Positions 3,485-57,638 of a stretch of 64,000 bases of DNA are shown here, piece after piece. The notes below the pieces were generated by a model that saw only the letters and a program-made list of their open reading frames with translations, did no database searches and was not told the origin of the DNA. Source of the DNA: Triglochin maritima (Eukaryota; Streptophyta; Magnoliopsida; Alismatales; Juncaginaceae); assembly GCA_963682175.1 (NCBI GenBank), contig OY821788.1:14774001-14838000 (forward strand), in the 5' to 3' direction. The translations under genes were made by a program, and so were the position numbers. Positions within the stretch are counted from its first letter, which is position 1, and each line of letters begins with the position of its first letter.

Positions 3485-4970
3485 TGTAGGATCCTAAGGG
3501 TCTCTAATTCTAATTACTATTAAGCTAATTACCTACTTGTTTAAGCAATCAAGAATATGCAACGAAATTTAAACAAAAACAAGCAAGTAAAGCAAACCAC
3601 AATGATGACACCGGATTTTTATAGAGGTTCGACCTCCGGCCTACTTCCTCTCTTGCAAGTTTTGTTCGATTTCCCTCGAGCTCCGCTCGCGTCTTTACTA
3701 TAAACCTCGTTCCGGGTCGAGATTAAGTCTTTTACAAAACAAACTCCACGAACACCATCGTGAGCTTGACTTTTTTCTCTCACAATCCTAGAGAAACACT
3801 TTGGGTATTCACCGAAGTCCTTGCTTTTTTACATCAGAGATGTTGAGTGGAACACACTCTCTACCTTTAGCACACTTAGCTTAGAATGTGGAATTGATAC
3901 TAAAGTGTGGAAGTGTAAACTTGGAGAGTAAATTTGGGGATTGGGAGACTTGAAAGTTTCTCTTAGGTGTATATGACAGTAAGAAGTGTAAGAGTTGTGT
4001 AATTGTATCATAGGAACACATATTTATAAGCTCCAAATGAGTTATAGCTGTTGGGAGAAGTTTGGTAAGTGTTTGTGGAAGAACACAAAACAGCAAATTG
4101 CAGGAATCAAAACTGAGTGAGTTCGGTCGACCGGATCGGGCTGAACGGTAGACCGTTAGGCAAATTTGAAATCGGTTTGGTCGACCGATAAAGATGCAGT
4201 CGACCGGATCAGGTTATAACTTAGGTACACTTAAGTTATCGGTCGAATACCGAATAGGGTTCGGTCGACCGAAAACTAACATGCTCTTTGGGGTTGACAA
4301 ACAAGATCAAATTTGATCAACCGAAACACAGTTCACGGTCGACCAAAAACCAACAGGTTGTTTGGGTTTGTCGAGACATCTTAAGTTCGATCGACCGAAC
4401 AAGGTCCTCGGTCGACCGATAGTAAAAAGTATTTTGGGGTATTTGTAAATAATACGAATACGACCGTTGGTATAATACGACAATTCTAACGGTCGGAAAT
4501 TTGTGTTGACTCGGTCGACCGAAAAGTTCTGCACGTTCGACCAAAACCGGGCTATAAAAACTAACAGGATAATTGATCACTCGGCGACCGAACGTGGGCA
4601 GACATTTCTTGTTTTGGTTTGGTGATTTCCGGTCTATGTTTGGGTTATCTATTGAAGTCCAAATTATATGAAATTTTGTGTGTGACTTCTATAAGGAACC
4701 TAGTGTGTATTTGAGTAGGTTTTAGCTCAAGTATGCTCAATTTACACAATGTACTAAGACTCAAAAGAAATGCAAATTACATGTCCTCAATTGAGTTTGA
4801 TTACATATCTTGACTTGATTTCCTTTTTTCTTTGAGTCTTGATCACCTGTAGAAGTTAGCACATAGCAATATATATATGCAATGCAATATGTGTGCTACT
4901 CTTCATTGATTATAATTAAGATTAGGTTGATTAAATCATCAAAACATAGATTAAGGTCAAAAAGCCAACA
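3485..4970 (-). mobile_element. Sirevirus-type LTR A (3' LTR of truncated element)
   Basis: On minus the LTR starts TGTTGGCTTTTTGACC at 4970 and ends GGATCCTACA at 3485, matching the terminal pattern of the LTRs at 26931, 30609, 50845 and 54088. A TATA-like box lies at 4021-4030 (TTATAAATA on minus). Just outside its inner end at 4971 is the first of several pyrimidine stretches, which are polypurine tracts on minus. The length of 1486 bp is close to its relatives. The left flank is the gypsy-like fragment; the other end of the element is lost, so no TSD can be found. Confidence 0.8.
4122..4593. repeat. Palindrome cluster in LTR A
   Basis: About a dozen copies or near-copies of the CGGTCGACCG type lie here, for example at 4122, 4180, 4260, 4337, 4388, 4411 and 4511, separated by 20 to 100 bases of unrelated AT-rich sequence. 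The TATA-proximal edge is 92 bp upstream of the LTR TATA box. The two arms (TCGGT and ACCGA) are better kept than the central bases. Confidence 0.85.
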
Positions 4971-5560
4971 ATCTCCCCATTTTGATGATGGCAACCTATA
5001 TCTTAATACTTGAAATTTTTAAATGTAAACTATGCATAAAAATGCCCCCCCTATGGATGTGCATATTTTTGTTCAATTATAATCGAATTTCAAGTTACCC
5101 CTTTAATTAGCTCTCCCCCTTTGACATCCATAAAAAATTATAAGATTTAAGAATTGAATTTTGGATGTCTTGTAATGAAGTTGTTCCCCTAAATTTTGCA
5201 CTTCATTACACTAAGAAAATGATATTCATTAAACTCCTCCTATCAATATGAATATGATTTTTCGATTAAGTTCAATTTTATTTCTCCCTTTTTTAAACAT
5301 CAAGCTAGTATATTAACAATAGGCATGTGATGTTTTAATTCCCCCTTTTTGACATCCATTTATAAATTTGACACTTAGGCAATGATGTGATTCAAATTTT
5401 AAGATATGCAATGAATCAATCTAAATTATATGTCAATAAGCATATAAAAACCTAGACTAGAACCAATTGATTCAAGAAATTTAGATGATAAGAAATTATA
5501 CCCACTTTGAAGCTTTGAATTGGTTCCAATCATCATTCGGTGATGCAACCGGCGTTGAAT
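4971..5560 (-). promoter_or_regulatory. Multiple polypurine tracts of Sirevirus element A
   Basis: Several pyrimidine runs (near 4971, 5045, 5110, 5230 and 5338), some followed by TTTGACATCCAT, are polypurine tracts on the element's own strand. Multiple tracts upstream of the 3' LTR are a described Sirevirus feature; the tract next to the LTR would prime plus-strand DNA synthesis. Element D has the same arrangement at 28473-28840. Confidence 0.7.
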
Positions 5561-5599
5561 TTTACTCTCAAGCTTGCCCGGTCACCACCGATCTCCTCC

Positions 5600-6675
5600 T
5601 CAAACACCTACTAGTGTAGATTTAGGTACCCAAACAACTTTGAGTCATTGAATGTTAGTTTTGGGAACCCAAACCATTTTGGTTTTAGGAACCCACACAC
5701 TTGAAGAACTATGCTTAACAAACCAATGCTTGTCATTTAGTGTGGTATGAGATACATGGCTTTTCAATTTGGCATTGTATCCTAAACCATGTTTATCTAG
5801 GGATTATCTTTGACTACCTAATAGCATGTCAAACATCTTGCTTCCATTTGTGAATTTTTCTAAATCTTTTCTTAATTGCATATTACAAGCTTGAAGATCT
5901 AGTTGTTCACTATCAATGGATGTTGCTTTTAAACTTTCAAGAGTTGATGCATTAGTTTCAAGTTTAACAACCAACTCATTTTTCTCATGCATGATTGATT
6001 CAATTTGGCTTCGCAGATCATTTATTAATTTTCTAGCATTCTTATTTTTGTCACAAATGATCTCATATTGTTTAACTAAGTCATTAAATGCATTTTGAAA
6101 CTCATCATGTGTATAAATTTCTTCATTACCACTAGAATGTGAGTTATCACTATGACAAGACTTAGTTGAGCATGATCTAATAGAACAAGAGTTAGAGTCT
6201 ACCTCACTTTGATCATCTTCAATAGCCATGAAGCATGAGTGGTCAACATCTCTTCTACTTTGCAAGGAAGATGATGATGGTGATGAAGAGTCATCTCATG
6301 TAGCCTTGTGAGCTTCCTCCTTCCTTTCTCTTCTCTTGCTCTTCTCCTTTTCTCTTCTCCTCTCCCTTCTCTCATTTTTCTTCTCCCCTTCTCTTCTCTC
6401 ATTTTTGCTCTCCTCCTTCTCCTTCTCCTTCTCCTTTTCTTTTTCTCTTTTCTCACCTCTTCTCCCTATTCTTTCATTCTTTTCTCCCTTATCCTTCTTG
6501 AGGTATTTGAAGAATGGCTAGGACTTCAATGTCCTCATCTTCTACACTTCTCCTTGGTTCCTCAAGATTTGCATGTAATGACAATAATGGTTTGTTCTTT
6601 GAGGCTTCCTTCTCTTTTCGATGGTTGATTTGAAGTTCATACGCCATCAAATTTCCAACGAGTTCCTCCATCTTT
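5600..6675 (-). pseudogene. Truncated Sirevirus gag of element A
   Basis: Minus-strand pieces match the Gag of element D: an N-terminal piece with the MEELVGNLMAYELQI motif (6671-6489), a charged Lys/Arg/Glu region (about 6470-6200), a coiled-coil-like Asn/Lys/Leu-rich part (6265-5804) ending MFDMLLGSQR, and repeated VWVPK-type motifs to about 5640. As in D, no CCHC knuckle lies between the charged region and the coiled coil, and pol does not follow. Homology stops near 6675, so the first half of Gag, the primer site and the 5' LTR are missing. Frameshifts occur near 6200 and 6490. Confidence 0.8.
6308..6478. repeat. CT-rich low-complexity tract
   Basis: A nearly pure pyrimidine stretch on plus (CTTCTC and TCTCCTT units) is the expanded form of the charged region of the minus-strand gag remnant. 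In element D the same region (29760-29820) is much shorter, so this looks like microsatellite growth within a decayed ORF. Confidence 0.8.
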
Positions 6676-7027
6676 GAGTTAGTTGGTAATTAAATTCAGT
6701 AGCACTTGCTCATTAAAATTATGTTCATTATTTTGACCTCAGTTAACACTTCCATGTAGACTACATTGTTTGTGTGGGCCGGACTATTATTGGTATTGCG
6801 AGGTGGTAATATTTTCAACGTTGCTCATGATGTTGCTACATACAGATGCCCATGTAAGTTCTTTATGCAAATTTATACCGATTTTGCTTAATGTTTGACC
6901 TTGACTTCGCTTAATTGAATATTAGTAAGAAATAAATTATATTACATGTAGGCATCTATTTGTATCCCAACTTGTATTCCTAATCTTTTAATTACATTTC
7001 TTACTGTTTATGATCAATTATTAAGTC
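6676..7027. other. AT-rich stretch, no gene recognised
   Basis: No coherent coding frame or known repeat was seen. A possible exon-like piece ends at a GTAAGT near 6852, but no protein match could be made. It begins where the Sirevirus gag remnant breaks off. Confidence 0.4.
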
Positions 7028-13560: not shown

Positions 13561-15410
13561 TGTAACATCCCAAAACAGCGAAAATTTAAAAATTTAAACA
13601 ATCAAGAGATTATCAGAATAAACTCATCAACGGGAATGTTACTCAGATAAATCAACAGTCGGTGCACCAATAATACAACAGAGTTTGTCAAAAGACGTGA
13701 TTATAACAATACAATGAAAAATTTAGGTACAAGCAATCACGATGACCTCGAAGAGTCCGAAGAGGATCCTGGCCCCAAAATGTAATTATAAAAACATGAA
13801 TCAAACAACGATGCCTGAGTTTCCCATTAGGAAACCCCGTATGTCAAGCTCACCTATATGCATGCAATAGTACGGTAAATGAACTTATCATACTAGTAGC
13901 ATGTCATGTCACATCTGCAATGCATCAAATCCCTCCAAGGGTAAACGGGACCTCAGTCCAACAACAACGACCCTCAACAGGGTCCACAAGGACATCAGTC
14001 CAGCAACAACAACGGGTCTCCACGGAACATCGTCAGCACCATCATCGCCGGCAAAAACCTCGACGGCATCGCCGGCACAACCTCGGCAGTATAACATACG
14101 TCCGGCACAACATCGGACGGGTCCAGACCGTAGTCTGCAAGGTCATCATGCTCCACGAGCCATGCGTCACACGCATTGGGATCCGCGATCCCTCAGGTCT
14201 ACTACTCATCAGAGAGTAAGACAACAACACGTCACACCACGTCCAACACGGAGGTGGTGCGACCCAAGTGTCCACACTCTTCCACACAGCGGTCCCTGAG
14301 CGGCACGAGCATGTGCCTGCCGTCACCTCCCGGCTCACACTTTAAGCGAGGACATGAGTTTCCGTGGACAGAGTTGACACGATCACAAGACCAGGAATTC
14401 GGTTCTGCACACAAACGGTCGACCGAAAAAGCCTAACCGGTCGACCGTCCCTAATAGGTTCGGTCGACCAAAAGTCTACAACGGTCAAACTATTCTGCGC
14501 GTCACTTAAGTCCAAACGGTCGAACACAAGTCTAAAACCGGTCGACCGAACACGAGGTCAAAATTCAGAGTTGGTCAAAATCAACAAGCTTATTCGGTCC
14601 ACCGACTCAGGGGTCCCGGTCGACCGAAAACTATCAGGGTCATCCTAATAGTCTACGTCATATAACGGTCGAACAAGATATATAAATCTGTCAAACAGCA
14701 TGCAGATTCATCAAGTACACTTAAGTTCCGGTCGACCCAAAAACCAGGAACGGTCGACCGAAAACCGACAATAGGCCTCCAACTCACCAGCACATAAGCA
14801 ACCGGTCGACCGCCACAATGGCATCATTCGACCGATGTTGGTTAAAGTCGGGCAAAAAGGTAAAACCGGTCGACCGCCCGAAGGCACTGGTCGACCGTTG
14901 GTCGACAGCAACCTTGCGCCAGCCAAGGATTTTACGTCGTTTCTCGTCGCCGGCGAGGTCTCCGACCGACCACGATCGACCACAACTTTCCACCAACGTC
15001 GGGAACAATAAAATCATACTAGAAGCCGGCATACCTCGACGAGAAGACGGAGCACACCGGAGTTCGCTCGACGTCATCCGCGACCTCACTCGAGCACTCC
15101 CCGCACCACGACCACGAGCCTCGCACACGTCCACCTCCGCGCGCCTCACGCCGGAGCAGACCCTTCCTCCACTGGACGCCGGAAAAGAGAAGAGGAGAAG
15201 TTGGGTGAGAGGTGAAAACAAATGGAAGAAGAATGGAAATGAGGAAGAGAGGGAGATGTGCTGGTTTTCTCTACACCAAACCAAACACCAACAGCAACCA
15301 TCCCCCCTACACCCATCACCCATCTCACAGCCCACTATTCCCCTCCTCTTCCCTATACTAATCCCCCACTAAACCCGGGATTAGCCACTAAGCAGGGTTA
15401 GGGGCTAACA
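13561..15410. mobile_element. Solo LTR with palindrome cluster, gypsy-like
   Basis: The block starts TGTAACATCCC and ends GGGGCTAACA, and is bracketed by perfect 5-bp GAAAC duplications, so the 1850-bp limits are firm. No primer site, polypurine tract or protein domain follows either end, so it is a solo LTR. The middle holds a cluster of CGGTCGACCG palindromes like those in copia and Sirevirus LTRs here. The GC-rich right third carries long ORFs on both strands that are not genes. The TGTAACATCCC terminus fits Ty3/gypsy elements better than copia, but the superfamily is inferred. Confidence 0.82.
14416..14906. repeat. Palindrome cluster in the gypsy-like solo LTR
   Basis: About 14 copies or variants of CGGTCGACCG, for example at 14416, 14439, 14460, 14538, 14618, 14750, 14803, 14867 and 14889. 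The spacer sequence is unlike that of the copia or Sirevirus clusters, so only the motif is shared. Confidence 0.88.
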
Positions 15411-20262: not shown

Positions 20263-20355
20263 TCGGATTACCGACCTTTACCCGGTCAATCGTTCCCTTA
20301 TACTCTGCTTCAGAATTATCTGGATATCTCAATTCGGTGTACCGAATGGGTATCG
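20263..20355 (+). mobile_element. Sirevirus element C, LTR middle part with palindromes
   Basis: Contains CGGATTACCG, CGGTCAATCG and TTCGGTGTACCGAA, and stops at TATCG, the left TSD of the copia insertion. The sequence continues at 33530 after the insertion. Confidence 0.6.
20351..20355. repeat. Target site duplication TATCG (left)
   Basis: TATCG here and at 33530-33534 bracket the copia B element 20356-33529. Confidence 0.8.
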
Positions 20356-21855
20356 TGAAGGGAATGTGTTCTAAAAGTTTTACTTTTAAATGTCAATTAT
20401 TATAAATTCTTAGAGTCAGTAACCACTTGATCTTCCTACAATTCTTGTTCCTTGTTTATGTTATTCGTCTTTTAGAAGTGTTAAGGAAGAGACTCTTGGT
20501 TCTTAACCGTAGAGCTCTAAAAGATATTGGTTTACATAAAACAAAAGATATTCGCAATCGTGGTAATTAACATGGGACATTAATTACCGAGTTAAGATTG
20601 TCATGTTGGTCATAGATCATTGTAGCTCTACAAGTGAGTGACAACACGGGTACACAAAAGAGGAAAATAATACTTTTGTATACTGAATTGACCTAACAAG
20701 TAAAATATTATAGAAATGTGTTTCTGTGTCATTAATATTTTACTGTGTCCTTGGTCCTTTGATATGAGACTTATATCTGATCGCTTAAGGTGTGCTTAAT
20801 TAGACTAGTGTCTTAAGCTATCAATGAGTGTAGTGCAAAGACATTAGTTGGTTAAGTATGACTTTTGTTGGAGAAAATAGTTAGTCAAAAGATTATCATT
20901 GCCACTCTTAATTGAGTGATGATATTAGTGGGCCCCTTGATAAAACAAAGTTATAATGTGCACAATGTGATTTGAGTTAAGTCACATATTTATAACTAGC
21001 TTAAAGAGATCAAGAAATGAATACTAATACAAAGATGACACAATACTACTTTGTGTGTATTCTTAATATCATGTGGCAAGGGACGGACACAAGTGGTGCA
21101 CTCCATCACTAAATGGATCAGGTTTTGATTCGAGTGGAATTAAGACATCTAACTAATTGGGAGCTATAATGTGTAGCTAGATACCGCTTATAGCTTGTGA
21201 TATTAAGCTCTTAATATCACTGCCAACTTAGTTTAGATCCTCCCATAGGTCACACCACAAAACTGGGAAACAAGAAATGAGGATTTTGAGTTCATAAGAT
21301 GTGTCGGGTTTCATGTAGAAAATATAACACATGGGGTAAACAAGCAAAATCAAAATTATATTGTGATTAATAACATAATTAGAATCTAAATTAAATTCAT
21401 ATGTGATGTAAATATTATGCGGTGTAATGATTGATCATTACATATGATAATATGTTACATAAGTTGTGAATTTACTACTAATCCCGAAATGTCAAATTTT
21501 GTAGGGGTTAAACCAAAATTTGACAAGTCTGCAGTACTGTGCACAAACGGTCGACCGGTTAACAGTAAACGGTCGACCGATCGATGCACGGTCGACCGGA
21601 CACGTATCGACCGATAACAGTGAATTTTCGTCTGTTCGGAACGGTCGACCGAAAATTGCGATGAAATATTTTAATGTTACGAGCGGTCGACCGAAACTTG
21701 GTTCGAGCGGTCGACCGAACCTCCAAACGGTCGACCGGTCCAGACGGTTTTCTGCAGAATAAATTTATGAATTAATTAGATCATGCATGGAATTGGTCCA
21801 TAATTGATTTAATTCGTGGCTAAGATTATTTGTTAGCAAATAATGGATGGTTTTT
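20356..21855 (+). mobile_element. Copia B 5' LTR, U5 deleted
   Basis: Matches the 3' LTR at 26046-26930/32583-33018 and the minus-strand LTR at 56780-58875. Homology stops near 21855 (after GGATGGTT), so the TATA box, R-U5 and primer site are missing. Around 20409-20450 it contains a 40-bp insert found in no other copy but repeated just outside the element at 20222-20262. Confidence 0.8.
21547..21741. repeat. Palindrome cluster in copia B 5' LTR
   Basis: About eight CGGTCGACCG-type palindromes (21548, 21569, 21588, 21605 partial, 21641, 21683, 21704, 21727) in under 200 bp. The 3' LTR of the same element has two more. Confidence 0.9.
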
Positions 21856-26930: not shown

Positions 26931-28472
26931 TGTGGGGATCTTAAGGGGCCCTCTAGTGATCGTAATTAAACAAGATGCGGAATTAAAAACTAATTACGAA
27001 CTAGCAACTAATCATGCAAGGGTTATTCTAAGAGATAGTGAACTTGCAAACCAACGTTGAAGTCGACGCCCGATTTAACGAGGTTCGGCACCCTCCCCGG
27101 GTCCTAGTCCTCACTCACAAGCCCCGCTCGTCCCTCGAGCCTCGCTTGTGGTTTCCACTATCCGATCTCCGTTACCGGGCCGAGATCAACGCCTTTACAA
27201 ACCCGAGCCTCGCGAACAATCTCGCCTCGCCCGTGTCTCCTCTCACAACCCGAGAGGGAGCTTCCTTGAAGCTATTACAACTCTTGTGATTTGGATGAAA
27301 GAATGGAATCACAACTCTTGCTAATGACACTTTAACTTTGAGCACACTTGGATTATGATATGGATCTAGGAATACAAGTGGTGAAGTTTTGGCTTGAGTG
27401 TATAGGATTTGAGCTTTGAAGGTTTGGGAAAGATAGCACAAGGATACTTGATGTTTGGAGAGTGTAGTGCTTGTGTTGTGCTTCTAATGAGGTCCTTATA
27501 TAGGCTTCAAAGCTCTTAGAGTCGTTGGGGAGTGGGTGAGAAAGTTGACCCATGAAATGTGATGATGTGACAAAAGTTCGGGCAGAATTTGCACGCTCCT
27601 CGGTAGACCGTTAACCCAACGGATTACCGACGATGGTCATTTCGGTTTACCGAATCTTATTCGGTTAACCGCTCACTCAACTCCAGTAGCTCTCTAACTA
27701 GCAACCCTAATATAATTCGGTTTACCGAAACCTATTCGGTGAACCGTTCCAAACTGGACAGTAAGATTGGTAGGGTTCTGTTTATGCTAGGTTCGGTTGA
27801 CCGTGTATACTTCGGTATACCGAAGTAGCGCGGGAATTGCGCTGACAAAGCGTGGGAGATTGGTTTACCAATAACGGTCAAGTTAAATAGCCGTTGGTCT
27901 CCTAAAGCAATATGATTCGGTTGACCGAATGAAGTTCGGTGTACCGAATATGGATAAGTCAATTTGGCTTTAGGTCAAGATATAAATACGACCGTTGGAG
28001 CAAAGTCCAAAACCGGTCCAGGCTAATTCGGTCTACCAAAGGCGGTTCGGTATACCGAGGTGGTTATTCCAGGGAACACCTAAAGGATTCTACACGGTTG
28101 ACCGCAAGGTGTTCGGTGGACCGAACTCTACAAGATTCGGTTTACCGAGAAGGGTTCGGTTAACCGTGGAGATACGGGACAGAATCCTAATGTGCTCAAG
28201 TTTACATTAATCCTTAGGACTCAAATTATACTACATTACATATTGGTCCAAAGCTTGATTACATGTCTTGAGTCTTTATCTTCTTGTCCCCAAGCTCCTT
28301 AGCTTGATTCTTCATCAACCTATTAAGAATATCGCAAGTACACGAATATATATGCAATGCATGTATTCATGTTTGCTTACTTTGATTGTCTAGGTTGATT
28401 GATTAAATATAGATTAAGATTAGATTACTTAATCATCAAAACTAAATAAAGATTAAGGCTAAAAAGCCAACA
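26931..28472 (-). mobile_element. Element D 3' LTR
   Basis: 1542 bp, TGTTGGCTTTTTAGCC to GATCCCCACA on minus. The TATA box is at 27494-27502 (TATATAAGG on minus). It is intact relative to the other LTR, which lacks ~157 bp near 30905. Confidence 0.9.
27601..28167. repeat. Palindrome cluster in D 3' LTR (variable centre)
   Basis: About 15 copies of TTCGGTNNACCGAA-type palindromes with differing central pairs, such as CGGTTTACCG (27642, 28138), CGGTATACCG (27813), CGGTTGACCG (27907) and CGGTTAACCG (28155). The edge is 99 bp upstream of the TATA box. Only the arms are conserved. Confidence 0.9.
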
Positions 28473-28840
28473 ATCTCCCCCTTTTTGATGATGGCAAATC
28501 TATATCTTAATATTTGAGTTCAATTGTATTTCTCCCCTTTCTATATGTTTTGTTTCTTAACATATATGTAATCTATGCATTTACAAGATTTCTCCCCCTA
28601 ACAACATGCATAGTTTATTTAAAATTGAAGCTCATCCTAATTTTTCTCCCCCTTTGACATCAATCAAAAAGCAAACATTAAGCATTTGATGCAAAGGTAA
28701 AATATATCTAATTCTCCCCCTTAATTATATGATTTTGCAATTTTAGGCTCCCCCTATCAATTAGGCTAAATAGCAACAATGAGTATTAACAATTAAGTGC
28801 ATTTCTATTCTCCCTCTTAGCTTATTTAACATCCATTTTA
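28473..28840 (-). promoter_or_regulatory. Multiple polypurine tracts of element D
   Basis: Pyrimidine runs at about 28474, 28533, 28591, 28644, 28715, 28750 and 28810 (CTCCCCCTTTTT, TTCTCCCCCT and similar) are polypurine tracts on minus. The one touching the LTR is the likely plus-strand primer. Several tracts in series are a described Sirevirus hallmark. Confidence 0.8.
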
Positions 28841-30555: not shown

Positions 30556-30594
30556 GCTAATATTTCGATTAAGAAAATAAATTTAGCTAACAAG

Positions 30595-30606
30595 GCTCTG
30601 ATACCA
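30595..30606 (-). promoter_or_regulatory. Primer binding site of element D
   Basis: TGGTATCAGAGC on minus, two bases after the LTR end. It is complementary to the 3' end of plant initiator Met tRNA and would start minus-strand cDNA synthesis. Confidence 0.92.
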
Positions 30607-31556
30607 AATGTGGGGATCTTAAGGGGCCCTCTAGTGATCGTAATTAAACAAGATGCGGAATTAAAAACTAATTACGAACTAACAACTAATCATGCAAGGG
30701 TTATTCTAAGAGATAGAGAACTTGCAAACCAACGTTGAAGTCGACGCCCGATTTAACGAGGTTCGACACCCTCCCCGGGTCCTAGTCCTCACTCACAAGC
30801 CCCGCTCGTCCCTCGAGCCTCGCTTGTGGTTTCCACTATCCGATCTCCATTACCGGGCCGAGATCAACGCCTTTACAAACCCGAGCCTCGCGAACAATCT
30901 CGCCACGCCTTTACTTGAGTGTATATGATTTGAGCTTTGAAGGTTTGGGAAAGATAGCACAAGGATACTTGATGTTTGGAGAGTGTAGTGCTTGTGTTGT
31001 GCTTCTAATGAGGTCCTTATATAGGCTTCAAAGCTCTTAGAGTCGTTGGGGAGTGGGTGAGAAAGTTGACCCATGAAATGTGATGAAGTGACAAAAGTTC
31101 GGGCAGAATTTGCACGCTCCTCGGTAGACCGTTAACCCAACGGATTACCGACGATGGTCATTTCGGTTTACCGAATCTTATTCGGTTAACCGCTCACTCA
31201 ACTCCAGTAGCTCTCTAACTAGCAACCCTAATATAATTCGGTTTACCGAAACCTATTCGGTGAACCGTTCCAAACTGGACAGTAAGATTGGTAGGGTTCT
31301 GTTTATGCTAGGTTCGGTTGACCGTGTATACTTCGGTATACCGAAGTAGCGCGGGAATTGCGCTGACAAAGCGTGGGAGATTGGTTTACCAATAACGGTC
31401 AAGTTAAATAGCCGTTGGTCTCCTAAAGCAATATGATTCGGTTGACCGAATGAAGTTCGGTGTACTGAATATGGATAAGTCAATTTGGCTTTAGGTCAAG
31501 ATATAAATACGACCGTTGGAGCAAAGTCCAAAACCGGTCCAGGTTAATTCGGTCTA

Positions 31557-31564
31557 CCGAAGGC
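31557..31564. repeat. 8-bp target site duplication CCGAAGGC (left)
   Basis: CCGAAGGC at 31557-31564 and 32141-32148 flank the MITE. The sister LTR has the empty site, with CCAAAGGC, near 28037. Confidence 0.92.
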
Positions 31565-32140
31565 TAGGGCTGTAAATGGGTAATATTTTACCCGCAACCC
31601 GCCCCGCCCCGCCTAATGCGGGTAGTGGACAAAAAAATGTTACCCGCCAACCCGCTAACCCGCCACCCGCATAACCCGCCTAATAAGCGGGTCGGGTTGC
31701 GGTTGTCTTGCAACCCGCCCCGCATAACCCGCAACCCACCTAATCAAATATATTATTAATTTTTTATATACCAAAATCATTTTAATGTTTCAATTTTACT
31801 CATAACCATTAACCCACCTTACCAAATCATTATTCAACACTAACCAAATGTCTAATTTTTCACTCAACACACATCCAATTTCCCAAAAAATACAATGAGT
31901 AATTACTATTTTTCAAGTTTTGATGTTCTTTTATTTTTCTTAGAAAAAATCAAAAAAATTTAAAAAACCCGCCAAACCCGCATAACCCGCCCCGCCTCAC
32001 CTAGTCCAACCTTATGCGGGGCGGGTAGCGGTTTTTTATTTTTGACCCGGCCCGCCCCGCCCCGCATACCCGCTTAACTTATGCGGGGCGGGTAGCGGTG
32101 GACCAAAAACCCGCCCCGCCCCGCCCCGCTTACACCCCTA
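31565..32140. mobile_element. hAT-type MITE
   Basis: 576 bp with terminal inverted repeats TAGGGCTGTAAATGGG and (right end, reversed) TAGGGGTGTAAGCGGG, and an 8-bp TSD, the hAT length. It has no coding capacity. Both ends are packed with ACCCGC/GCGGGT units in opposite orientation (CCCGCCCCGCC runs), giving long inverted subterminal repeats, while the middle is AT-rich. It is the youngest layer of the nest. Confidence 0.9.
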
Positions 32141-32582
32141 CCGAAGGCGGTTCGGTATACCGAGGTGGTTATTCCAGGAAACACCTAAAGGATTCTACAC
32201 GGTTGACCGCAAGGTGTTCGGTGGACCGAACTCTACAAGATTCGGTTTACCGAGAAGGGTTCGGTTAACCGTGGGGATACAGGACAGAATCCTAATGTGC
32301 TCAAGTTTACATTAATCCTTAGGACTCAAATTATACTACATTACATATTGGTCCAAAGCTTGATTACATGTCTTGAGTCTTTATCTTCTTGTCCCCAAGC
32401 TCCTTAGCTTGATTCTTCATCAACCTATTAAGAATATCGCAAGTACACGAATATATATGCAATGCATGTATTCATGTTTGCTTACTTTGATTGTCTAGGT
32501 TGATTGATTAAATATAGATTAAGATTAGATTACTTAATCATCAAAACTAAATAAAGATTAAGGCTAAAAAGTCAACATATGT

Positions 32583-33529
32583 TACATAAGTTGTGAATTT
32601 GCTACTAATCCCGAAATGTCAAATTTTGTAGGGGTTAAACCGAAATTTGACAAGTCTGCAGTACTGTGCACAAACGGTCGACCGGTTAACAGTAAACGGT
32701 CGACCGATCGATGCACGGTCGACCGGACACGTCTCGACCGATAACGGGGAATTTTCGTCTGTTCGGAACGGTCGACCGAATCTATCGGTCGGTCGACCGA
32801 AAATTGCGATGAAATATTTTAATGTTGCGAGCGGTCGACCGAATGTCGGACGGTCGACCGAAACTTGGTTCGAGCGGTCGGCCGAACCTCCAAACGGTCG
32901 ATCGGTCCAGACGGTTTTCTGCAGAATAAATTTAAGAATTAATTAGATCATGCATGGAATTGGTACATAATTGATTTAATTCGTGGCTAAGATTATTTGT
33001 TAGCAAATAATGGATGGTTAGATGGAAGTTTGCATGAAATCATGGGCAAGAGGTTGCACATGAATAGGTAATTTGGAGAGAACTTATAAATACAAGTTTA
33101 TCTCATTACCTCATTAATTAATTCATTATTTTCTCATGCAAAAATCTCTCTCCATAATTCTCCACGAAATTTCCTTAATTCTTAAGATTAGTTTTAGTTT
33201 TCGGAGATCTTCTTCTCAAGGGAACTAAAGAGGGGTTAGTAATTGGATTCTAAACCCTATTGGAGATTGAGAGGCTAGCTCTTCTCCGAATCTCGGAGGC
33301 ATCCGGCGCAACAACAAGCATCCTCAACGTCTCCGAATCTTCAAGAAGTTTTAGAGAACTTCTAGGTATGAATTTCGGAGTCCCATGTTTGTTTTAATAA
33401 AAGTTTTAAAACTAGTTATTGAAACAAACCAATGCATGCATGAAACAAATCATAGAAAATTGTAATTAATCCTTATTATGCATAAAAGTTTCGAAAATAT
33501 ATATGCAAAATTAAACATGAAATCCTACA
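32583..33529 (+). mobile_element. Copia B 3' LTR, second piece
   Basis: Continues the LTR after the right TATGT copy (32578-32582) and ends GAAATCCTACA at 33529, followed by the TATCG TSD at 33530-33534. It has the TATA box (AACTTATAAA, 33081-33090) that is deleted from the 5' LTR. Confidence 0.88.
32674..32907. repeat. Palindrome cluster in copia B 3' LTR
   Basis: Nine to ten CGGTCGACCG-type palindromes, two more than in the 5' LTR. The edge lies about 175 bp upstream of the TATA box. Central CGs show decay (CGGTCGGCCG, CGGTCGATCG at the right end). Confidence 0.9.
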
Positions 33530-33534
33530 TATCG

Positions 33535-34653
33535 GTCATCCGAACTTCGCATGTGTCTTTTAGCCTAAACGACTTCATCTTATTGGCCCACGTGGCACAA
33601 ACTAACTCCAACAGACTTATCTTTTGTCATTTAGTTAGAACCAATTGAAACGTCCAATATCGGTCTACTGAGAACCGGTCGGCTTACCAAATACTTGTTG
33701 ATTAATCTAAACGTAATGGCTTTTTTCCACGTAAGATTTCGACCATTATCGATAAACCAATTTCTCAGCCAATGTCAGCAGAAAACCAGCACATGTATCG
33801 GTCAACCGACCTTGCCACGGTCTACCAAACAAGATCACCAAATCATAACATTTGTTTATTGTTCAATTGGACCGGTGAACCGAGGCTCTCTCGGTCAACC
33901 AAACTTAATTGGTCGATTTTAGGAAAAAGATACTAGAAGTTGGTGAACGGTTATCCGACACATAATCGGTGAACCGAGTGCTTCAATCTGACCAATAAAC
34001 CCACACTTTGTCGAACGACCGTTGGTTACCCGGTCGACCGAATTCGTCCTGAATTCTGCCCGAGCTTAAGTCACATCTTGTTTTCCTTTGGTCCAATTCA
34101 CACCAACTTACCATAACGGCTCTATTTGTTTTGAAGGTTATATAAGCTTCACTTAAGAAACACATTCACTCCTCGACTTGCCAAAAATCAATTCTACTCT
34201 TGTGCTCTCAATCTCCAAGCCTTCAAAGCTCCACCAACTCTCAAACTTCCATTAAATTCACTTCAAGCTTAATTTCAATCCTTGAGTGCGTTGAAGTTAG
34301 AGTTCAATGACCTCATTCAATTTCTATTGTGTTGTAAAGCTTCGAGGAAGCACCCTCTCGGGTTGCGAGAAGAGATCCGAGCAAGATGAGGGTGTTCGCA
34401 AGGCTCCGATTGTAAGAGGGTTTATCTTCGACCCGGAACGAAGATAATAGTGAATTCTCGAGTAGAGATTGGATGATCGATCGGAACTTGAGGATAGGAC
34501 TAGATCACAGTGGTGTGATCGAACCTCTATAAATCTCCGGAGTCATCTTGTGGTTTGCATTCTTTCCTTCATTACTTTAATTGTGAAATTGTTCAAGAAA
34601 ATTAGGAGATAATCTATTCACCCCCCTCTAGATTAGTGACTGATTAACTTACA
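33535..34653 (+). mobile_element. Sirevirus element C, 5' LTR, last part
   Basis: Resumes the LTR broken at 20355. It contains palindromes, a TATA box at 34138-34146 (TTATATAAG) and the LTR end TTAACTTACA, directly followed by the primer site. The strand and terminal pattern agree with the first part at 18691. Confidence 0.8.
33659..34043. repeat. Palindrome cluster in LTR C
   Basis: About eight divergent copies (TATCGGTCTACTG, ATCGGTCAACCGA, CCGGTGAACCGAG, CTCGGTCAACCAA, ATCGGTGAACCGAG, CCGGTCGACCGAA). The edge is about 95 bp upstream of the TATA box. Confidence 0.8.
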
Positions 34654-34655
34654 TT

Positions 34656-34667
34656 TGGTATCAGAGC
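34656..34667 (+). promoter_or_regulatory. Primer binding site of Sirevirus C
   Basis: TGGTATCAGAGC, two bases after the LTR end; complementary to initiator Met tRNA. Confidence 0.92.
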
Positions 34668-36725: not shown

Positions 36726-36732
36726 TTTTGTT

Positions 36733-38185: not shown

Positions 38186-38417
38186 GAAAAGTAAAAGTTG
38201 CATGGGGAAACCAAACGTTTCAGTGAGAAAAGTAAAAGTGGCATGGGGAAACCAAACGTTGCAGTGAGAAAGTAATGTTGCATTGGGAAATTAAATGTTG
38301 CATGTGACACCAACATGTTATTAAATGAATTTCTCTGCTGACTGGATTGCTGACTCAACTGACCACGTCAGCCGCGTCTGGGACGCGCGCGGCCGTGTAT
38401 AAGCGCCCGTAAGTAAA

Positions 38418-50020: not shown

Positions 50021-50022
<2 letters not shown>

Positions 50023-50844: not shown

Positions 50845-52363
50845 TGTTAGGATCTATGACCCTCTAATCGATAGAAAAATGCGGAATTAAAAATACTAAG
50901 CGAAGGATTAAGGAAGAGACAATTGCAAACCACAAAATTGTTGACACCAGAGTTTAGAGAGGTTCGACACCCACACCCGGGTCCTAGTCCTCCTCGCAAG
51001 CCTCGCTCGATCCCCCGAGCCTCGCTTACGGTTCCACTAACTGATCTCCGTTCCGGGTCGAGATCAACGCCGTTTACAACACCGAGCCTCGCGAACAATC
51101 CTCGCCTCGCTCGTGTCTCCTCTCACAACCCGAGAGGGAGCTTCCTCGAAGCTTTTACAACTCTTTGATTCTTTGATGTGGAAGTTGAATCACACTCTAA
51201 CTAACACTTTATACTTGAGCACACTTGGATATGATATTGAATTGGATATGCAAGTGGTGAAGTTTAGGCTTGAGTGTTGTGGATTGAGACCTTGAAGATG
51301 GAGAGGATTTGACTTTGAGTATTGGATAGATAGCAAGTGTTCAAGAGATCCAAAGAAACCAAATGAGGTCCTATTTATAAGCCTTCAAGCTCATATAGCC
51401 GTTTGGATGTTGGTGGTGAATGAACCAATGAGAAAGCAAGATGTGACTTAAGCTCGGCCAAAAATCGGGACAGATTCAGTCGACCGTTATCCACACGGTA
51501 GTCCGAAACATTGGTCTGAACTATGAACTCGGTTGACCGATTATGTATCGGATCATCGTTCACCAACCTCCAGTAGCTTTTATCTATTTAGCTCTAATTA
51601 AATTCGGTTCACCGAAGTCAATTCGGTTCACTGTTCCAAGGTGGACAGTAGAATTGATTGGGCTATGATCTACTATACTTCGGTAGACCGTGTATACTTC
51701 GGTAGACCGAAGTAGCGCGGGTATTCCACTGACAATGCGTGGGAAATTGTTTTATCGATAACGGTCAAGTTAAATAGTCGTTGAGCTCCTAAAGCCAATA
51801 AGAATTCGGTAGACTGAAGTGTGTACGTCGTCCGAAGAGGGTCAAGTTAATTTGGCTCTAGGGTCTTGATTTGAATGCGACCATTGGAGCAAAGTCCAAA
51901 ACCGATCCAGGGCTATTCGGTCGACCGAAGGTGGTTCGGTCTTCCGTTGGGGCAATTCCAGAGAACACCTAAGTTTCACTATTGGGAAGTATTTGGCTAT
52001 CTGATAGGTGTTCGGTGGACCAAACTAGGTAGAGTTCGGTTAACCGAAATAAGTTCGGTTTACTGAGAAATAACGGGACAGAATCCTAGTGCTCAAGTTT
52101 ACATAAAACCTTATGACTCAATAAATATAAAAGTTACATGTCTTGGTCCAAAGCTTTGATTACAAGTCTTGAGTCTTGATGTCCTTGTCCCAATGCTAAT
52201 TTCATTGATTGTCTTGATCAACCTATTAAGATGATTACAAGTATACAAACATATATGCAATGCATGTAATCATGTTTGCTCACTTTGATTGAATAGGTTG
52301 ATTGATTAAGATTAGTTCAATTAATCATCAAAATTAATATAGATTAAGGCCAAAAAGCCAACA
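50845..52363 (-). mobile_element. Sirevirus-type solo LTR F
   Basis: 1519 bp on minus from TGTTGGCTTTTTGGCC (52363) to GATCCTAACA (50845). The flanks are CCCCT on the left and TCCCT on the right, a 4/5 match to a 5-bp TSD. The TATA box is at 51371-51380 on minus. Neither a primer site nor a polypurine tract adjoins it, so it is a solo LTR. It splits the PMD gene between MF and the PLISAF motif. Confidence 0.85.
51480..52066. repeat. Palindrome cluster in LTR F
   Basis: About 14 motifs with variable centres (CGGTTGACCG, CGGTTCACCG, CGGTAGACCG three times near 51690, CGGTCGACCG, CGGTTAACCG). The edge is 100 bp upstream of the TATA box. Confidence 0.85.
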
Positions 52364-53755
52364 TCCCTGCCTTGACATGCCGTTGATTTCTGCATTTGTG
52401 GAGCGGTGGCAGCCCGCCACCTACTCTTTCCACTTGCCTTTCGGAGAGATGACGATCATGTTGCATGACGTCTTCATTCTGCGCATTCCTGTTGACGGTC
52501 ATATGGTCAGTGCTCAGGCATCGACGCATGAGCTGAAGAGTTATGTATCAGAGTTGCTCGGGGTGAGCGTCGATGGTCTTGGGAGGGATACCTCTTTTGG
52601 AGTGGCGGTGGTGTTAGCATCGACATTGTTGACGACTTTTGCAGACAGGGAAGACCACCGCTGACTGAGGATACGCAGTTGACTGCCTACCTGTTCTTAC
52701 TGCTCGGATGTGTATTGTTTGTCGACAAGAGTGGTTGCAGAGTCAGACCACGTGACCTATTGGAGGCTAGGGACCCGTATACGATTGGTCAGTACTCATG
52801 GGGATAGCGAGCCGTGCTGATTGTTTTGGTATTGCGAGTTATCTTACGCTGCTGCAGGCTTGGATATATGAGTATTTTCCTCCTTTCCGCCCGCATCGGG
52901 AGCGAAAAATCATTGAGTTGGGCCATCCTCGTTCATGTATGTGGGATGTCCGGACCGAGGATAAGAGCGAGGGGCGAATCTATTCCATTCGTAGACGACT
53001 AGATCAGATAACTGCATCGCATGTATAAAACTTTATATCATTGACGTTTATTTAAATATTATTATTATTATGATTATTAACGTGTAAACGTTTACGTGGA
53101 GTGGTTGCCTTATGGGCCTGAGCATGTTGCGTTTGTGCCGAGGACTTTATTGATGAGCGTTATTCCTTATCGGGATATCATGGAGCCTTATTTGCCTGAT
53201 CGCGTCTTGCGTCAGTTAGGGTACGTTCAGGTTATGCCGGTTCACATCCTGACGCCAGTGCATGCAGTGTGGTATGCGATTGTGATGACTTACGACATCA
53301 GGTACAACACTTCGAGCGTGGAATCAGTTTAGAGGACATTTCCGAGAGGAGGCCGAATTCACCTTGGCGATCTCACACGTAGCCACGACCCCTCCACTTG
53401 TCATGCAGATTATTTGGATTGGTTTGGTAGGTGCTCACATCTAGTTCTTGTGCACGGTACTGCGTCGAGACCTGATAGGCCACTAGATAGGACATGTGGA
53501 GATGCGGTAAGTTTTTGTAAATTAATTTTTTATTTGTATTGTATATTTTGTTTTTCTTGTTAATGTACACTAATTTGGATGTTATATCCAGTGGATGAGA
53601 ATGGCGATACGGCTTGTGCAACCATTTCTGGATTATAGGGAGCAGATGCCGAACAAGGAGATGAGATCTGCATGTGAAGGTTGGGATGACTTCATACAGG
53701 TGTGGAACAGTCAGTTGGGCATTTCCGACCACGATTCGAATGATGAGTTGTAGTA

Positions 53756-53929
53756 GGCTTGTACATTATTTACTTTATTATCTGTTGAACTCTTATCAAT
53801 TCTATTTGTATTTTCTTACTTGTTGTACTATTATTATTTATTTCTAAGAAACATATCTTCTCCTTATTTGATGCATTTTAAATTTGAAATCTAATAAAAA
53901 AACACGATAAGAAAACAAGACGAACAAAT
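53756..53929. other. Short AT-rich gap between converging genes
   Basis: Separates the end of the PMD gene from the end of the minus-strand MULE gene. No feature recognised. Confidence 0.5.
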
Positions 53930-54087
53930 TACACATTAAAAGTATAGTTATTTAACCAATACATTACAAATTACAATCAAAATCTACTACGTAACTAATC
54001 CCACAAGGTCCTCTGCCCCAATCAATTCGCTGACGAGATTGTACCACACCGTCATAATAAACGTGCTCATAAATGGGATGCATCCCT

Positions 54088-55567
54088 TGTTGGCTTTTTG
54101 GCTTTAATCTATGTTTTGATGATTAATCAACCTAATCTTAATTGTAATCAATGTAGAGTAGCACACATATTGCATAACATATATATTGCTTTGTGCTAAT
54201 TTCTAAAGGTGATCAAAACTCAAGGAAGAAATGATTCAAGTCAAGACATGTAATCAAGCTCATTTGAAGACATGTAATTTGCATTTCTTTTGAGACTTAG
54301 GAACATTGTGTAATTCAGCATACTTGAGCTAAGATCAACTTGCATACACACTAGGTTCCCTATAGAAGTCACACAAAAAATTTCACATCAATTAGACTAC
54401 AATAGATGACCTAAACTTAGACCGGAAAACACTAAACTAAACCAGAACTGTCTCCCCACATTTGGTCGACCGAGTGATCAATTATCCTGTAGTGTTTTCA
54501 ACTGCCCACATTCGGTCGACCGTGCAGACCATTTCGGTAAACTGAATCAACATAATTTTCCGACCGTTAGACTTGTCGTATTATACCAACGGTTGTATTC
54601 GAATTATTCACAAATACCCCAAAATACAAATTGCCCATCGGTCGACCGTGGACCTGTTTCGGTCGACCAAACTTAATTGTCTCCAAAATATGCAACTGCA
54701 TGGGAGTTTCCGGTTGACCGAAGACTTTGGATCGGTCGACCAAACTTGATCATTTTCGCCAACCCTGTAGAGCTTGTTAGTTTTCGGTCGACCGAACCCT
54801 ATTCGGTGTTTGACCGTTAACTTAAGTGTACCTAAGTTATAGTCTATTTTGTTCGACCATTCCATTATCGGTCGACCAAACCTTGTTCCAAATTGCCAAA
54901 CGGTCAACCGTTTGACCCGTCCGGTCGACCAAATTTGTTCTGAAATGTGTCCTGCAATTTTCTATTTTGTGTTTCTTACACAACTTACCACACTTAACCC
55001 CAACGGCTATAATACCTTAGGAGCTTATAAATAGAGGTGTCCAACATTATTTTACACAACTCTCTCACTCTATATTGTCCACTACCTTAGAGAGAAAGCT
55101 CCACACACTCAAAAGCTCAAACCTTCCACACTTAGTAATCAATTCCATATCTTACTCAAGTGTGCTCAAGTTTAGAGAGTGTTGTCTCACTCATTCCTTT
55201 GTCAAGAAAGTAAGGATTTCGGTGAAAGCCCAAAGTGTTCCCTCTCAGATTGTGAGAGGAAGAAAGTCAAGCAAGCGAGGGTGTTCGCGGTGCTTGTGTT
55301 GTAAAGGTGTTCTCTCTCGGCCCGGAATGAGGAGTGGTTAGTGAAGTCGTGAGCGGAGCTCGACGATCCTAGCGGAGCTTGCAAGAGAGGACTATGACCC
55401 GGGTGAGGTGCCGAACCTCTTTAAAATTCACCGTCTCCATTGTGGTTTGCTTAATTCGTCCCTTTACTTGCATTTGATTGTTGTTTTTGCTGTGTATTTC
55501 TTTTGCTTATGCAAGTAGCTAATGAAGAGCATTAATAAGGATTAGAAGCCTTCGTTACGATCCTACA
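54088..55567 (+). mobile_element. Sirevirus-type solo LTR E
   Basis: 1480 bp from TGTTGGCTTTTTGGCT to GATCCTACA. The flanks TCCCT (54083-54087) and CCCCT (55568-55572) match at 4 of 5 positions. The TATA box is at 55025-55033 (TTATAAATA). No primer site follows. It is inserted in the OTU-like part of the MULE gene. Confidence 0.85.
54463..54932. repeat. Palindrome cluster in LTR E
   Basis: About 12 sites (54463, 54514, 54534, 54639, 54659, 54710, 54732, 54784, 54870, 54899, 54921), mostly CGGTCGACC with one arm decayed. The edge is about 93 bp upstream of the TATA box. Confidence 0.85.
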
Positions 55568-56359
55568 CCCCTCTCATTAGAAATCGCAAGACGGGCGTAA
55601 AACCAATTGTCTTGACCACCATGGAAAACATCGGCAACAAATCGAAATCCACAGGTTCCATCAGCACGTACATCATTCCACCTATCCATAAATTGTAAGA
55701 TGATTCCTAGTAGTTTATCAACATATGGGAAGTTATCAACGTCAATCCGTCTGGACACTACAGGATGAAAAAATAGCAAAGTTATATATAATAACTGGAA
55801 GAACATGTTTACTGGAAAAAAACAACGAAGTAATAATAATAACAACAAACATGTCGTCATACCAGATCCTGTACTTATGTTTACGGACGATCAAGACAAA
55901 CTAGAAGATCGACCACGATCCCTGCTCTGACTACTAGAAGATCGACCACGACTTTGCTCAGCATACTCAAAGGCACTCGGGTCCCGACGTGTCGACTTTC
56001 CCCTTGGTCGACCTCTTACCTTAGTATTTTCTTCGGGCTCTAAATTGTTCGACTGATCGGGGTGTAACTGCGCGTATAACATACGAGAGGCACTACGAAT
56101 TACTGTAGGGTCCCTCCTGGATATCTCATCAACGAAGTTCCAAAAATGCTCAACGTCTTGTGATGACTGATTCACAAACTCTGGCATCTAGACTCCTTCT
56201 CCAATGACAAGTATTTTCCAGAAAGGATGAATATGCTCTAAATAAATTCATTCGCCTGACTCAATACAACCGTGCATGGTACATGCACAAGGAATCTCAT
56301 GTGATGTCAGAAAAGCACACCCACAACGATATTCAATTAATTGCTTAAGCCCTACATTC

Positions 56360-56364
56360 TCTAC
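56360..56364. repeat. Target site duplication TCTAC (left)
   Basis: TCTAC here and at 58876-58880 bracket the chimeric copia element. Confidence 0.85.
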
Positions 56365-56767
56365 TGTTGGATTTCGTGCCCCATAGTATGTATATATTTT
56401 CGAAATTTTATAAACATATAGGATCGAAACATTCATATTTTCTTCGATTTTCATATAGACATGCATTTGTTTGTCCTAATTATTTAACAAGCATTAGAAC
56501 AAACAAACAATTGCAAAGAGGATCATACCTAGAGGTTCTCTAAAACCTCTTGAAGATCCGGAGTCGCGTTGCCGGTCGAATCGCCCGGTGGATTGCCTCC
56601 GAGTATTCACCAAACTCTAAACGAGATTGGAGAGAGAAGAGTTAGCCTCTCAATCTCCAACAAAACATTTAAAGATCGAAAAACGGGAAAATCGAATTGT
56701 TCGAATCCTAGATGGTAAACTAAATCTATTTATAGTTTCAAATCATTAGAAAATTGAACCCTAATCT

Positions 56768-56778
56768 CTGATACCACT
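56768..56778 (-). promoter_or_regulatory. Primer binding site in the chimeric copia element
   Basis: TGGTATCAGAG on minus, one base after the LTR end; the match to the initiator Met tRNA end stops at 11 bases. Confidence 0.8.
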
Positions 56779-57424
56779 GTAGGATTTCATGTTTAATTGT
56801 GCAAATATATTTTCGAAATTTTTATGCATAATAAGGGTCAATTACAATTTTCTATGATTTGTTTCATGCATGCATTGGTTTGTTTCAATAACTAGTTTTA
56901 AAACTTTTATTAAAACAAACATGGGACTCCGAAATTCATACCTAGAAGTTCTCTAAAACTTCTTGAAGATTCGGAGACGTTGAGGATGCTTGTTGCTGCG
57001 CCGGATGCCTCCGAGATTTCACCAAACTCTAAACAAGATTGGAGAGAGAAGAGCTAGCCTCTCAATCTCCAATAGGGTTTAGAATCCAATTACTAACCCC
57101 TCTTTAGTTCCCTTGAGAAGAAGATCTCTGAAAACTAAAACTAATCTTAAGAATTAAGGAAATTTCGTGGAGAATTATGGAGAGAGATTTTTGCATGAGA
57201 AAATAATGAATTAATTAATGAGGTAATAAGATAAACTTGTATTTATAAGTTCTCTCCAAATTACCTATTCATGTGCAACCTCTTGCCATGATTTCATGCA
57301 AACTTCCATCTAACCATCCATTATTTGCTAACAAATAATCTTAGCCACGAATTAAATCAATTATGGACCAATTCCATGCATGATCTAATTAATTCTTAAA
57401 TTAATTCTGCAGATAACCGTCTGG

Positions 57425-57638
57425 ACCGGTCGACCGTTTGAAGGTTCGGTCGACCGCTCGAACCAAGTTTCGGTCGACCGTTCGCAACAATAAAATATTT
57501 CATCGCAATGTTCGGTCGACCGACCGATAGATCCGGTCGACCGTTCCGAACAGACAAAATTCCCTGTTATCGGTTGAGACGTGTCCGGTCGACCGTGCAC
57601 CGATCGGTTGACCGTTTACTGTTATCCGGTCGATCGTT
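57425..57638. repeat. Palindrome cluster in the 56780-58875 LTR
   Basis: Eight or nine CGGTCGACCG-type motifs. The edge is about 175 bp upstream of the TATA box (57241-57250, read on minus), the same distance as in the 32583-33529 LTR. Confidence 0.88.

What the first reader, a model, noticed from the sequence alone, without database searches (positions are those of the whole stretch)
4122..57638. One palindromic motif shared by the LTR promoters of unrelated retrotransposon families, at fixed distances from the TATA box
Clusters of 7-15 palindromes of the form TTCGGT-NN-ACCGAA (often centred on GGTCGACC) occur in copia B LTRs (21547-21741, 32674-32907, 57425-57638), Sirevirus-type LTRs (4122-4593, 27601-28167, 31122-32272, 33659-34043, 51480-52066, 54463-54932) and a gypsy-like solo LTR (14416-14906). 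Spacer DNA differs between families, so the motif itself seems to be retained or gained. In the six Sirevirus-type LTR copies the near edge lies 92-100 bp upstream of the TATA box; in copia B it is about 175 bp in both LTRs where it can be measured. In D and F the centre varies freely (CG, TA, TT, TG, CA) while the arms stay, as expected for a dimeric protein reading two half-sites. Conserved palindromes in Sirevirus non-coding DNA have been described; sharing with non-Sirevirus copia and gypsy-like LTRs in one genome would be more unusual. Possible roles: a host activator site, a silencing or anti-silencing site, or a nucleation point for DNA methylation at CG-rich centres.
Basis: partly seen in the sequence, partly recalled or inferred. 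Interest (0 to 1): 0.82.

Follow-up and report, generated by a model that had tools for sequence, protein, structure and literature searches.

The report
Shared palindrome arrays in retrotransposon promoters
In one large plant genome, unrelated families of jumping genes carry arrays of the same short DNA palindrome in their terminal repeats, spaced in step with the turns of the DNA helix, which suggests that they depend on the same DNA-binding protein.

Summary
The core CGGTNNACCG occurs 78 times in the window, all inside intervals I delimited as LTR. TTCGGTNNACCGAA occurs 43,821 times in the 1.06-Gb genome against 53 for the reversed control. The carriers are unrelated. D and F have published Sirevirus junctions. 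Copia B lacks them, and its gag does not match D's. The 'gypsy-like' LTR family flanks a true Ty3/gypsy chromovirus in L028 (RVT_1, chromodomain). Another Ty3/gypsy family, H, carries arrays too. No significant spacer homology was found between families.

Two regularities point to a bound protein. Half-sites are 2 bp apart: 198 cases against at most 17 at any other gap from 0 to 16. Neighbouring palindromes follow a ~10.5-bp ladder: 90 of 111 distances in phase, each of 11 clusters above half. TATA distance is fixed in Sireviruses (95-99 bp) and copia B (180-183); no TATA was found beside the gypsy arrays.

CGG-CCG boxes, including CGGTCGACCG in a Vitis element, were published in 2010 as Sirevirus-specific (PMC2829016). 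Presence in classic copia and Ty3/gypsy, and helical phasing, appear new. Protein and effect are unknown.

The parts
4124..4521 (-). palindrome cluster, Sirevirus-type LTR A (9 sites, 5 exact); TATA at 4022-4028, 96 bp away
   Evidence: LTR start TGTTGGC
14416..14897 (-). palindrome cluster, LTR of Ty3/gypsy family G (11 sites, 8 exact); no TATA found
13561..15410 (-). LTR copy of Ty3/gypsy family G (no internal part seen in the window)
   Evidence: alignment to the L028 LTRs; no RVT_1 hit of the L028 piece in the window
20264..20344 (+). far part of the Sirevirus F LTR cluster (3 sites, 1 exact), cut off by the nested B element
   Evidence: flanking TATCG duplication
21548..21737 (+). palindrome cluster, copia B 5' LTR (8 sites, 7 exact); LTR end with TATA missing
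27601..28166 (-). palindrome cluster, Sirevirus D 3' LTR (16 sites, 14 exact); TATA at 27496-27502, 99 bp away
31122..32271 (-). palindrome cluster, Sirevirus D 5' LTR (11 + 6 sites, split by an insert); TATA at 31017-31023, 99 bp away
32675..32904 (+). palindrome cluster, copia B 3' LTR (10 sites, 7 exact); TATA at 33085-33091, 181 bp away
33533..34040 (+). near part of the Sirevirus F LTR cluster (9 sites, 4 exact); TATA at 34139-34145, 99 bp away
   Evidence: PBS junction 34652-34667
51477..52065 (-). palindrome cluster, Sirevirus-type LTR C (13 sites, 6 exact); TATA at 51373-51379, 98 bp away
54463..54931 (+). palindrome cluster, Sirevirus-type LTR E (11 sites, 5 exact); TATA at 55026-55032, 95 bp away
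   Evidence: 77% identity to A
57427..57636 (-). palindrome cluster, copia B LTR (9 sites, 7 exact); TATA at 57241-57247, 180 bp away
28475..28482 (-). terminal Sirevirus polypurine tract AGGGGGAG of D (four more upstream to 28755)
   Evidence: against PMC2829016 section 6
30595..30610 (-). Sirevirus 5' LTR/PBS junction of D
   Evidence: against PMC2829016 section 12
34652..34667 (+). Sirevirus 5' LTR/PBS junction of F
56765..56776 (-). primer-binding-site-like TGGTATCAGAGA after a B LTR, not the Sirevirus junction
59685..62408 (-). Ty1/copia pol frame of the B family (rve, RVT_2), 908 aa
4229..4236 (.). second shared site ACTTAAGT in cluster A (also 14504, 14719 in G and 54820 in E)

Best explanation
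Each cluster is an array of binding sites for one homodimeric, sequence-specific DNA-binding protein of the plant. It reads two CGGT/ACCG half-sites (best (T)CGGT-NN-ACCG(A)) with a fixed 2-bp gap, and neighbouring dimers sit on the same face of the helix, so they can touch or act together. In Sireviruses and copia B the array lies at a family-specific fixed distance upstream of the TATA box, and most likely works as the upstream activating (or anti-silencing) region of the LTR promoter. Unrelated LTR retrotransposons (Sirevirus, a classic copia, two Ty3/gypsy families and unidentified families I, J, K) have come to depend on it. Shown: the motif, its restriction to LTRs in the elements examined, the 2-bp spacing, arm conservation in near subfamilies, helical phasing, the four family identities and the lack of spacer homology. 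Inferred: that a protein binds, that it is host-encoded, that it activates, and that sharing arose mainly by convergence rather than short-tract exchange.
For: Gap of 2 bp in 198 cases, other gaps 0-17 each. Arms kept, centre free: D/C arms 144/159, centre 21/40, rest 1861/2485; A/E arms 75/80, centre 15/20, rest 2074/2703. Neighbour distances of 19-25 bp: Sirevirus 26 of 52 (expected 7.9), B 31 of 56 (12.8), G 14 of 34 (4.2), H-K 27 of 70 (9.8); none of 2,000 simulations reached these (B, G, H and K include related copies). Genome list of 100 close pairs: 84 at 18-25 bp, 0 at 26-30, 6 at 31-34, 0 at 35-39, 10 at 40-45; with 100 wider pairs, best period 10.5 bp, R 0.50. In 11 clusters, one per family or subfamily, 90 of 111 distances are in phase. 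TATA distance constant in Sirevirus and B, also where the B cluster itself is replaced (L020). Zero exact cores in the internal regions examined of B, D, G and H.
Against: No binding, expression or methylation data. No TATA found beside the gypsy arrays. For D, C and F alone adjacent distances fit 9.25 bp better than 10.5; the wider genome pairs alone fit 11.0 best. In distant pairs arms are not better kept than the rest: A/D 71/150 against 1312/2531, B57/L020 65/102 against 2912/3765. The clusters also fold strongly as RNA (z -5.1 to -7.6), as the hairpin rival predicts. The related copies in the genome lists are not independent.
Confidence: 0.6

Rival explanations
1. The arrays are targets of a trans-acting protein encoded by a transposable element, as VANC21 acts on VANDAL21: an anti-silencing factor made by one family, whose site other families have acquired as free riders.
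For: VANC21 binds dense arrays of a short motif in non-coding parts of its own elements (PMC5735166, passages).
Against: VANC arrays are same-orientation tandem repeats of one family. Here sites are dyads, spacers are not repeats of one another (14-nt flank identity 0.24-0.38 against 0.25-0.26), and several superfamilies share the site. No TE-encoded candidate was looked for beyond Pfam domains.
Confidence: 0.1
2. The arrays are sites of a host repressor or a nucleation point for DNA methylation.
For: CG is the centre of 118 of 198 exact cores; near-matches beside exact cores show CpG transitions in 39 of 93 cases, from 4 of 24 possible changes, as expected of methylated copies.
Against: A site harmful to the element should be lost, whereas arrays persist in abundant families and arms are kept in near subfamilies. 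CpG decay is expected of any silenced copy.
Confidence: 0.12
3. The palindromes act as RNA: copies pair with one another into hairpins that feed or evade small-RNA silencing, as proposed for maize Sireviruses (recalled; that paper, gr.193763.115, is not held).
For: Cluster RNAs of D, B and G fold far better than shuffles: z -6.4, -5.1, -7.6.
Against: Any palindrome array must fold so. Pairing does not require a 2-bp gap or a 10.5-bp ladder.
Confidence: 0.1
4. About origin, not function: blocks of U3 DNA moved between families by recombination or template switching.
For: ACTTAAGT lies next to palindromes in Sirevirus A/E, gypsy G, I and J, and 18-21-bp words are shared between some families. 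B subfamily L020/L001 has a replaced cluster inside an otherwise similar LTR.
Against: With the motif masked, no significant homology links clusters of different families; the best cross-family match of the three clusters tested is 23 nt at E 0.007.
Confidence: 0.25

Closest known systems
Sirevirus repeated motif (RM) boxes, Bousios et al. 2010, PMC2829016 (outline, sections 6, 9, 12, 19 and search passages seen)
   Same: Palindromic CGG-CCG boxes in 8 or more copies per element, clustered in the LTR upstream of a TATA box; the Vitis RM CGGTCGACCG is identical to the core here.
   Different: The paper calls the RM Sirevirus-specific and absent from classic elements. Here it is in a classic copia and in two Ty3/gypsy families of one genome, and the sites are helically phased, which the parts I saw do not mention. 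Other published RMs have gaps other than 2 bp (for example CGGTCTGACCG).
VANC21 target arrays of VANDAL21 in Arabidopsis, PMC5735166 (search passages seen)
   Same: Dense arrays of a short motif in non-coding DNA of a transposable element, read by a sequence-specific protein.
   Different: Same-orientation tandem repeats, one DNA-transposon family, protein encoded by the element.
Symmetric activator boxes of single elements such as Tnt1 box I (named in PMC2829016 section 19; otherwise recalled)
   Same: Short symmetric repeats in an LTR promoter proposed as activator sites.
   Different: Known in single families, not one code across superfamilies.

Membership tests
Sirevirus RM boxes | palindromic repeat with CGG-CCG core | tested here: met
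Sirevirus RM boxes | at least eight copies, clustered in the LTR upstream of the TATA box | tested here: met
   Sirevirus-type and B clusters, counting sites with up to 1 mismatch; TATA upstream position not shown for G and H
Sirevirus RM boxes | restricted to Sireviruses | tested here: not met
   B, G and H are not Sireviruses
Sirevirus RM boxes | cluster defines a CpG island | not tested
   CpG-island prediction was not run
Sirevirus (D, F, L035, L036) | AGGGGGAG tracts before the 3' LTR and conserved PBS junction | tested here: met
   D both, F the PBS junction only; five tracts each in L035 and L036
Sirevirus (copia B) | AGGGGGAG tracts and conserved PBS junction | tested here: not met
   gag unlike D's. 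No reverse-transcriptase tree was made
Ty3/gypsy chromovirus (family G) | RVT_1 polymerase and chromodomain between two LTRs | tested here: met
   L028, (Chromo E 9.8e-6)
Ty3/gypsy chromovirus (family H) | RVT_1 polymerase and chromodomain | tested here: inconclusive
   RVT_1 found, chromodomain not at E 0.001: Ty3/gypsy yes, chromovirus open
VANC-type target arrays | same-orientation tandem repeats | tested here: not met
   palindromic sites with unlike spacers
VANC-type target arrays | bound by an element-encoded protein that removes methylation | not testable with these tools
   needs protein and methylome data
Binding array of a dimeric transcription factor | fixed half-site spacing and helical phasing | tested here: met
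Binding array of a dimeric transcription factor | a protein binds both half-sites and changes LTR transcription | not testable with these tools
   needs DAP-seq, EMSA or reporter assays

The most novel reading that the evidence does not exclude
Ty1/copia and Ty3/gypsy elements of one plant genome have converged on a single regulatory code: a helically phased array of CGGT-NN-ACCG dyads, partly with an ACTTAAGT partner site, so that one DNA-binding protein controls a large share of the genome's LTR retrotransposons (170,932 palindrome pairs with gaps of 5-35 bp against 2,732 in the control pattern; 179,128 with gaps of 36-66 bp against 38).
Probability: 0.4. Interest if true: 0.88.

Novelty: new variant of a known kind. 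Interest (0 to 1): 0.74.

Why it matters
If one protein drives unrelated retrotransposon superfamilies through a shared phased array, a plant has a single handle on many of its LTR retrotransposons, and the open question of what the Sirevirus palindromes are for becomes testable with one binding screen and one half-turn shift. It would also be a clear case of selfish elements of different origin converging on the same regulatory code, and could explain why unrelated families become active together.

Tried and rejected
Whole-U3 sharing by recombination: not seen by motif-masked blastn. The one component that joins Sirevirus and B I read as an effect of nesting (B sits in F, D in B, within the 800-bp flanks). 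Simple tandem growth: 14-nt flanks are near random in most clusters, though raised in SireD (0.33), B2 (0.38) and K (0.33) against 0.25. A shared TTCTGC box beside clusters: seen by eye, not general (4 of 10 clusters). A small copia with 245-bp LTRs next to the H cluster (L016/L029) was first taken for its carrier; it is a separate insertion and its LTRs hold no cluster. A reverse-transcriptase tree of B against Sireviruses was not made: the Sirevirus copies fetched show no match to B pol.

Literature, listings unless said otherwise: six exact forms of the motif gave 41 papers, 30 listed, among which only PMC2829016 is about transposable elements by title. Sirevirus palindromes (13 of 13, 20 of 309), shared binding sites (13 of 13), LOB-domain factors (12 of 260, none), chromovirus palindromes (10 of 91) and helical phasing in LTRs gave no title or abstract start that reports this sharing. 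'Not found in print' rests on these searches, in a library that lacks most subscription journals.

Not answered by the busy genome server: the total count of CGGTNNACCG, the 3-bp-gap control CGGTNNNACCG, and searches to identify families I and K. J was never sent. The organism was not identified.

Counting notes: the samples contain L004, which lies inside L033, so one cluster is counted twice; L002, L003, L005, L006 and L007 were dropped as overlapping. The 17 sample stretches (L011-L027) were taken at arbitrary, not random, places. In one search, 13 of the 100 close pairs (beyond C1:424393) were left out to match the range of the second list. The LTR intervals were drawn by me after seeing the clusters.
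Full report
Observation. The palindrome is real and far above chance: TCGGTNNACCGA 31 against 0.01; TTCGGTNNACCGAA with up to 2 mismatches 78 against 2.19; genome-wide 43,821 exact 14-mers against 53 for the reversed control. Of 78 exact cores CGGTNNACCG in the window, 78 lie in LTR intervals (16,801 bp, drawn by me) and none in the other 47,199 bp. Dinucleotide shuffles of nine LTRs give means of 0.005-0.09 against 4-14 observed. In 17 arbitrarily placed 10-kb stretches, 38 of 44 exact cores sit in clusters.

Who carries it. D and F have published Sirevirus junctions: D has five AGGGGGAG tracts, the AGGGGGAGATTGTTGG junction and the CATTTGGTATCAGAGC junction; F has the last. C begins TGTTGGC and A has a slightly changed tract before TGTTGGC. 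E is called Sirevirus-type by its 77% identity to A. The junction AGGGGGAGATTGTTGG occurs 3,424 times in the genome against 1 in the control. Two places taken from that list by the junction alone, L035 and L036 (one subfamily), both carry the array, with a TATA 97 bp away by their coordinates. B is Ty1/copia by RVT_2 but lacks these junctions. Its gag does not match D's (E 0.35), and many of the 120 listed relatives of its pol (4,705 found) are polyproteins of about 1,300-1,380 aa. The 14.4-kb LTR belongs to an abundant family (40 scored of 7,658 first-look candidates). Its copy L028 has 2.17-kb LTRs, 97.05% identical, around gag, RVP_2, RVT_1, RNaseH, integrase and chromodomain pieces. Family H (L016, L008) has LTRs of about 1.97 kb that recur in pairs 5.7-6.6 kb apart, around another polyprotein with gag, protease, RVT_1 and RNaseH. 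Families I, J and K are unidentified, and the cluster at L029:1233-2146 is only weakly similar to G (99 bp at 75%).

Architecture. (1) The gap between half-sites is 2 bp: 198 cases in 307 kb, other gaps 0-17 each (one cluster counted twice). (2) In near subfamilies arms are kept while the centre drifts. In more distant pairs the sites are not kept in place (A/D, B57/L020), so the array turns over. Subfamily L020/L001 keeps about 90% identity to B over the first ~1,050 bp but has a cluster that does not align, with the same motif and, in L020, a TATA at 183 bp against 180-181. (3) Neighbour distances are quantised: 19-25 bp first, then about 31-34, 40-45, 51-53, 63-64 and 73-74, with none at 26-30 and 35-39, three at 58-62 and four at 65-71. 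The best period is 10.5 bp, R 0.50. In 11 clusters 90 of 111 distances are in phase, 69-100% each; beyond 26 bp, 42 of 58. Against this, adjacent distances of D, C and F alone fit 9.25 bp better, because a 19-bp pair dominates, and the wider genome pairs alone fit 11.0 bp best. The genome lists start at one end of C1 and hold related copies, so the 11-cluster count is the safer one. (4) A second site, ACTTAAGT, lies beside or between palindromes in Sirevirus A/E, gypsy G, and families I and J. One form of the pair, ACCGNNAACTTAAGTG, occurs 1,760 times against 1 in the control, probably largely from one Sirevirus group.

TATA. Distances are 95-99 bp in nine Sirevirus-type copies (six in the window; L019 98; L035 and L036 97) and 180-183 in the four measurable B copies. 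J and K have candidate boxes at 76 and 56 bp, differing from the Sirevirus value by about 2 and 4 turns, and B by about 8; with so few values this is suggestive only. No consensus TATA was found beside the gypsy arrays.

Mechanism. Strict dyad spacing, free centre, conserved arms and helical phasing together fit a dimeric protein bound in register on one face of the DNA. They do not follow from hairpins, tandem duplication or CpG content, although cluster RNAs fold better than shuffles. Near-matches show excess CpG transitions (39 of 93, in 4 of 24 kinds of change), as expected if silenced copies are methylated. Position upstream of the promoter and persistence in abundant families favour an activating or anti-silencing role; this is inference. 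Half-sites CGG/CCG recall zinc-cluster or LOB-type dimers, but no factor was identified.

Known or new. Palindromic CGG-CCG boxes are a published Sirevirus trait, the Vitis one being identical to this core, and were stated to be absent from classic elements (PMC2829016). Presence in a classic copia and in Ty3/gypsy, and helical phasing, were not found in print in the searches named under Tried and rejected. I rate it a new variant of a known kind.

Noticed in passing
window 50118-59570: A larger repeat with Plant mobile domain (PF10536) pieces at 52338-53329 appears to be interrupted by LTRs C, E and B; L025 and L019 carry its pieces in the same order.
   Followed up: partly
window 26931-32577; L035, L036: Sirevirus elements whose internal part shows gag but no match to B pol; in the window D is such an element, with LTRs about 99% identical. 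They resemble the gag-only elements known as TR-GAG (recalled).
   Followed up: partly
window 20350-33534: Nested insertions: B inside the Sirevirus F LTR with TATCG duplicated, beside a palindrome, and D inside the B 3' LTR with TATGT duplicated. A listed paper (PMC6911290, abstract start only) says that LTR elements often target palindromes.
   Followed up: no
window 31565-32138: A ~575-bp insert rich in ACCCGCCCCGCC-like repeats splits the D 5' LTR.
   Followed up: no
window 56363-56776: A B LTR is followed by a primer-binding-site-like sequence and then by a partial copy of the LTR end.
   Followed up: no
window 36322-38230: A tangle of internal direct repeats, including three copies of AAAGGTGAACCGCA.
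   Followed up: no
sampled loci: The 2-bp centre of the exact core is CG in 118 of 198 cases and never GC.
   Followed up: no
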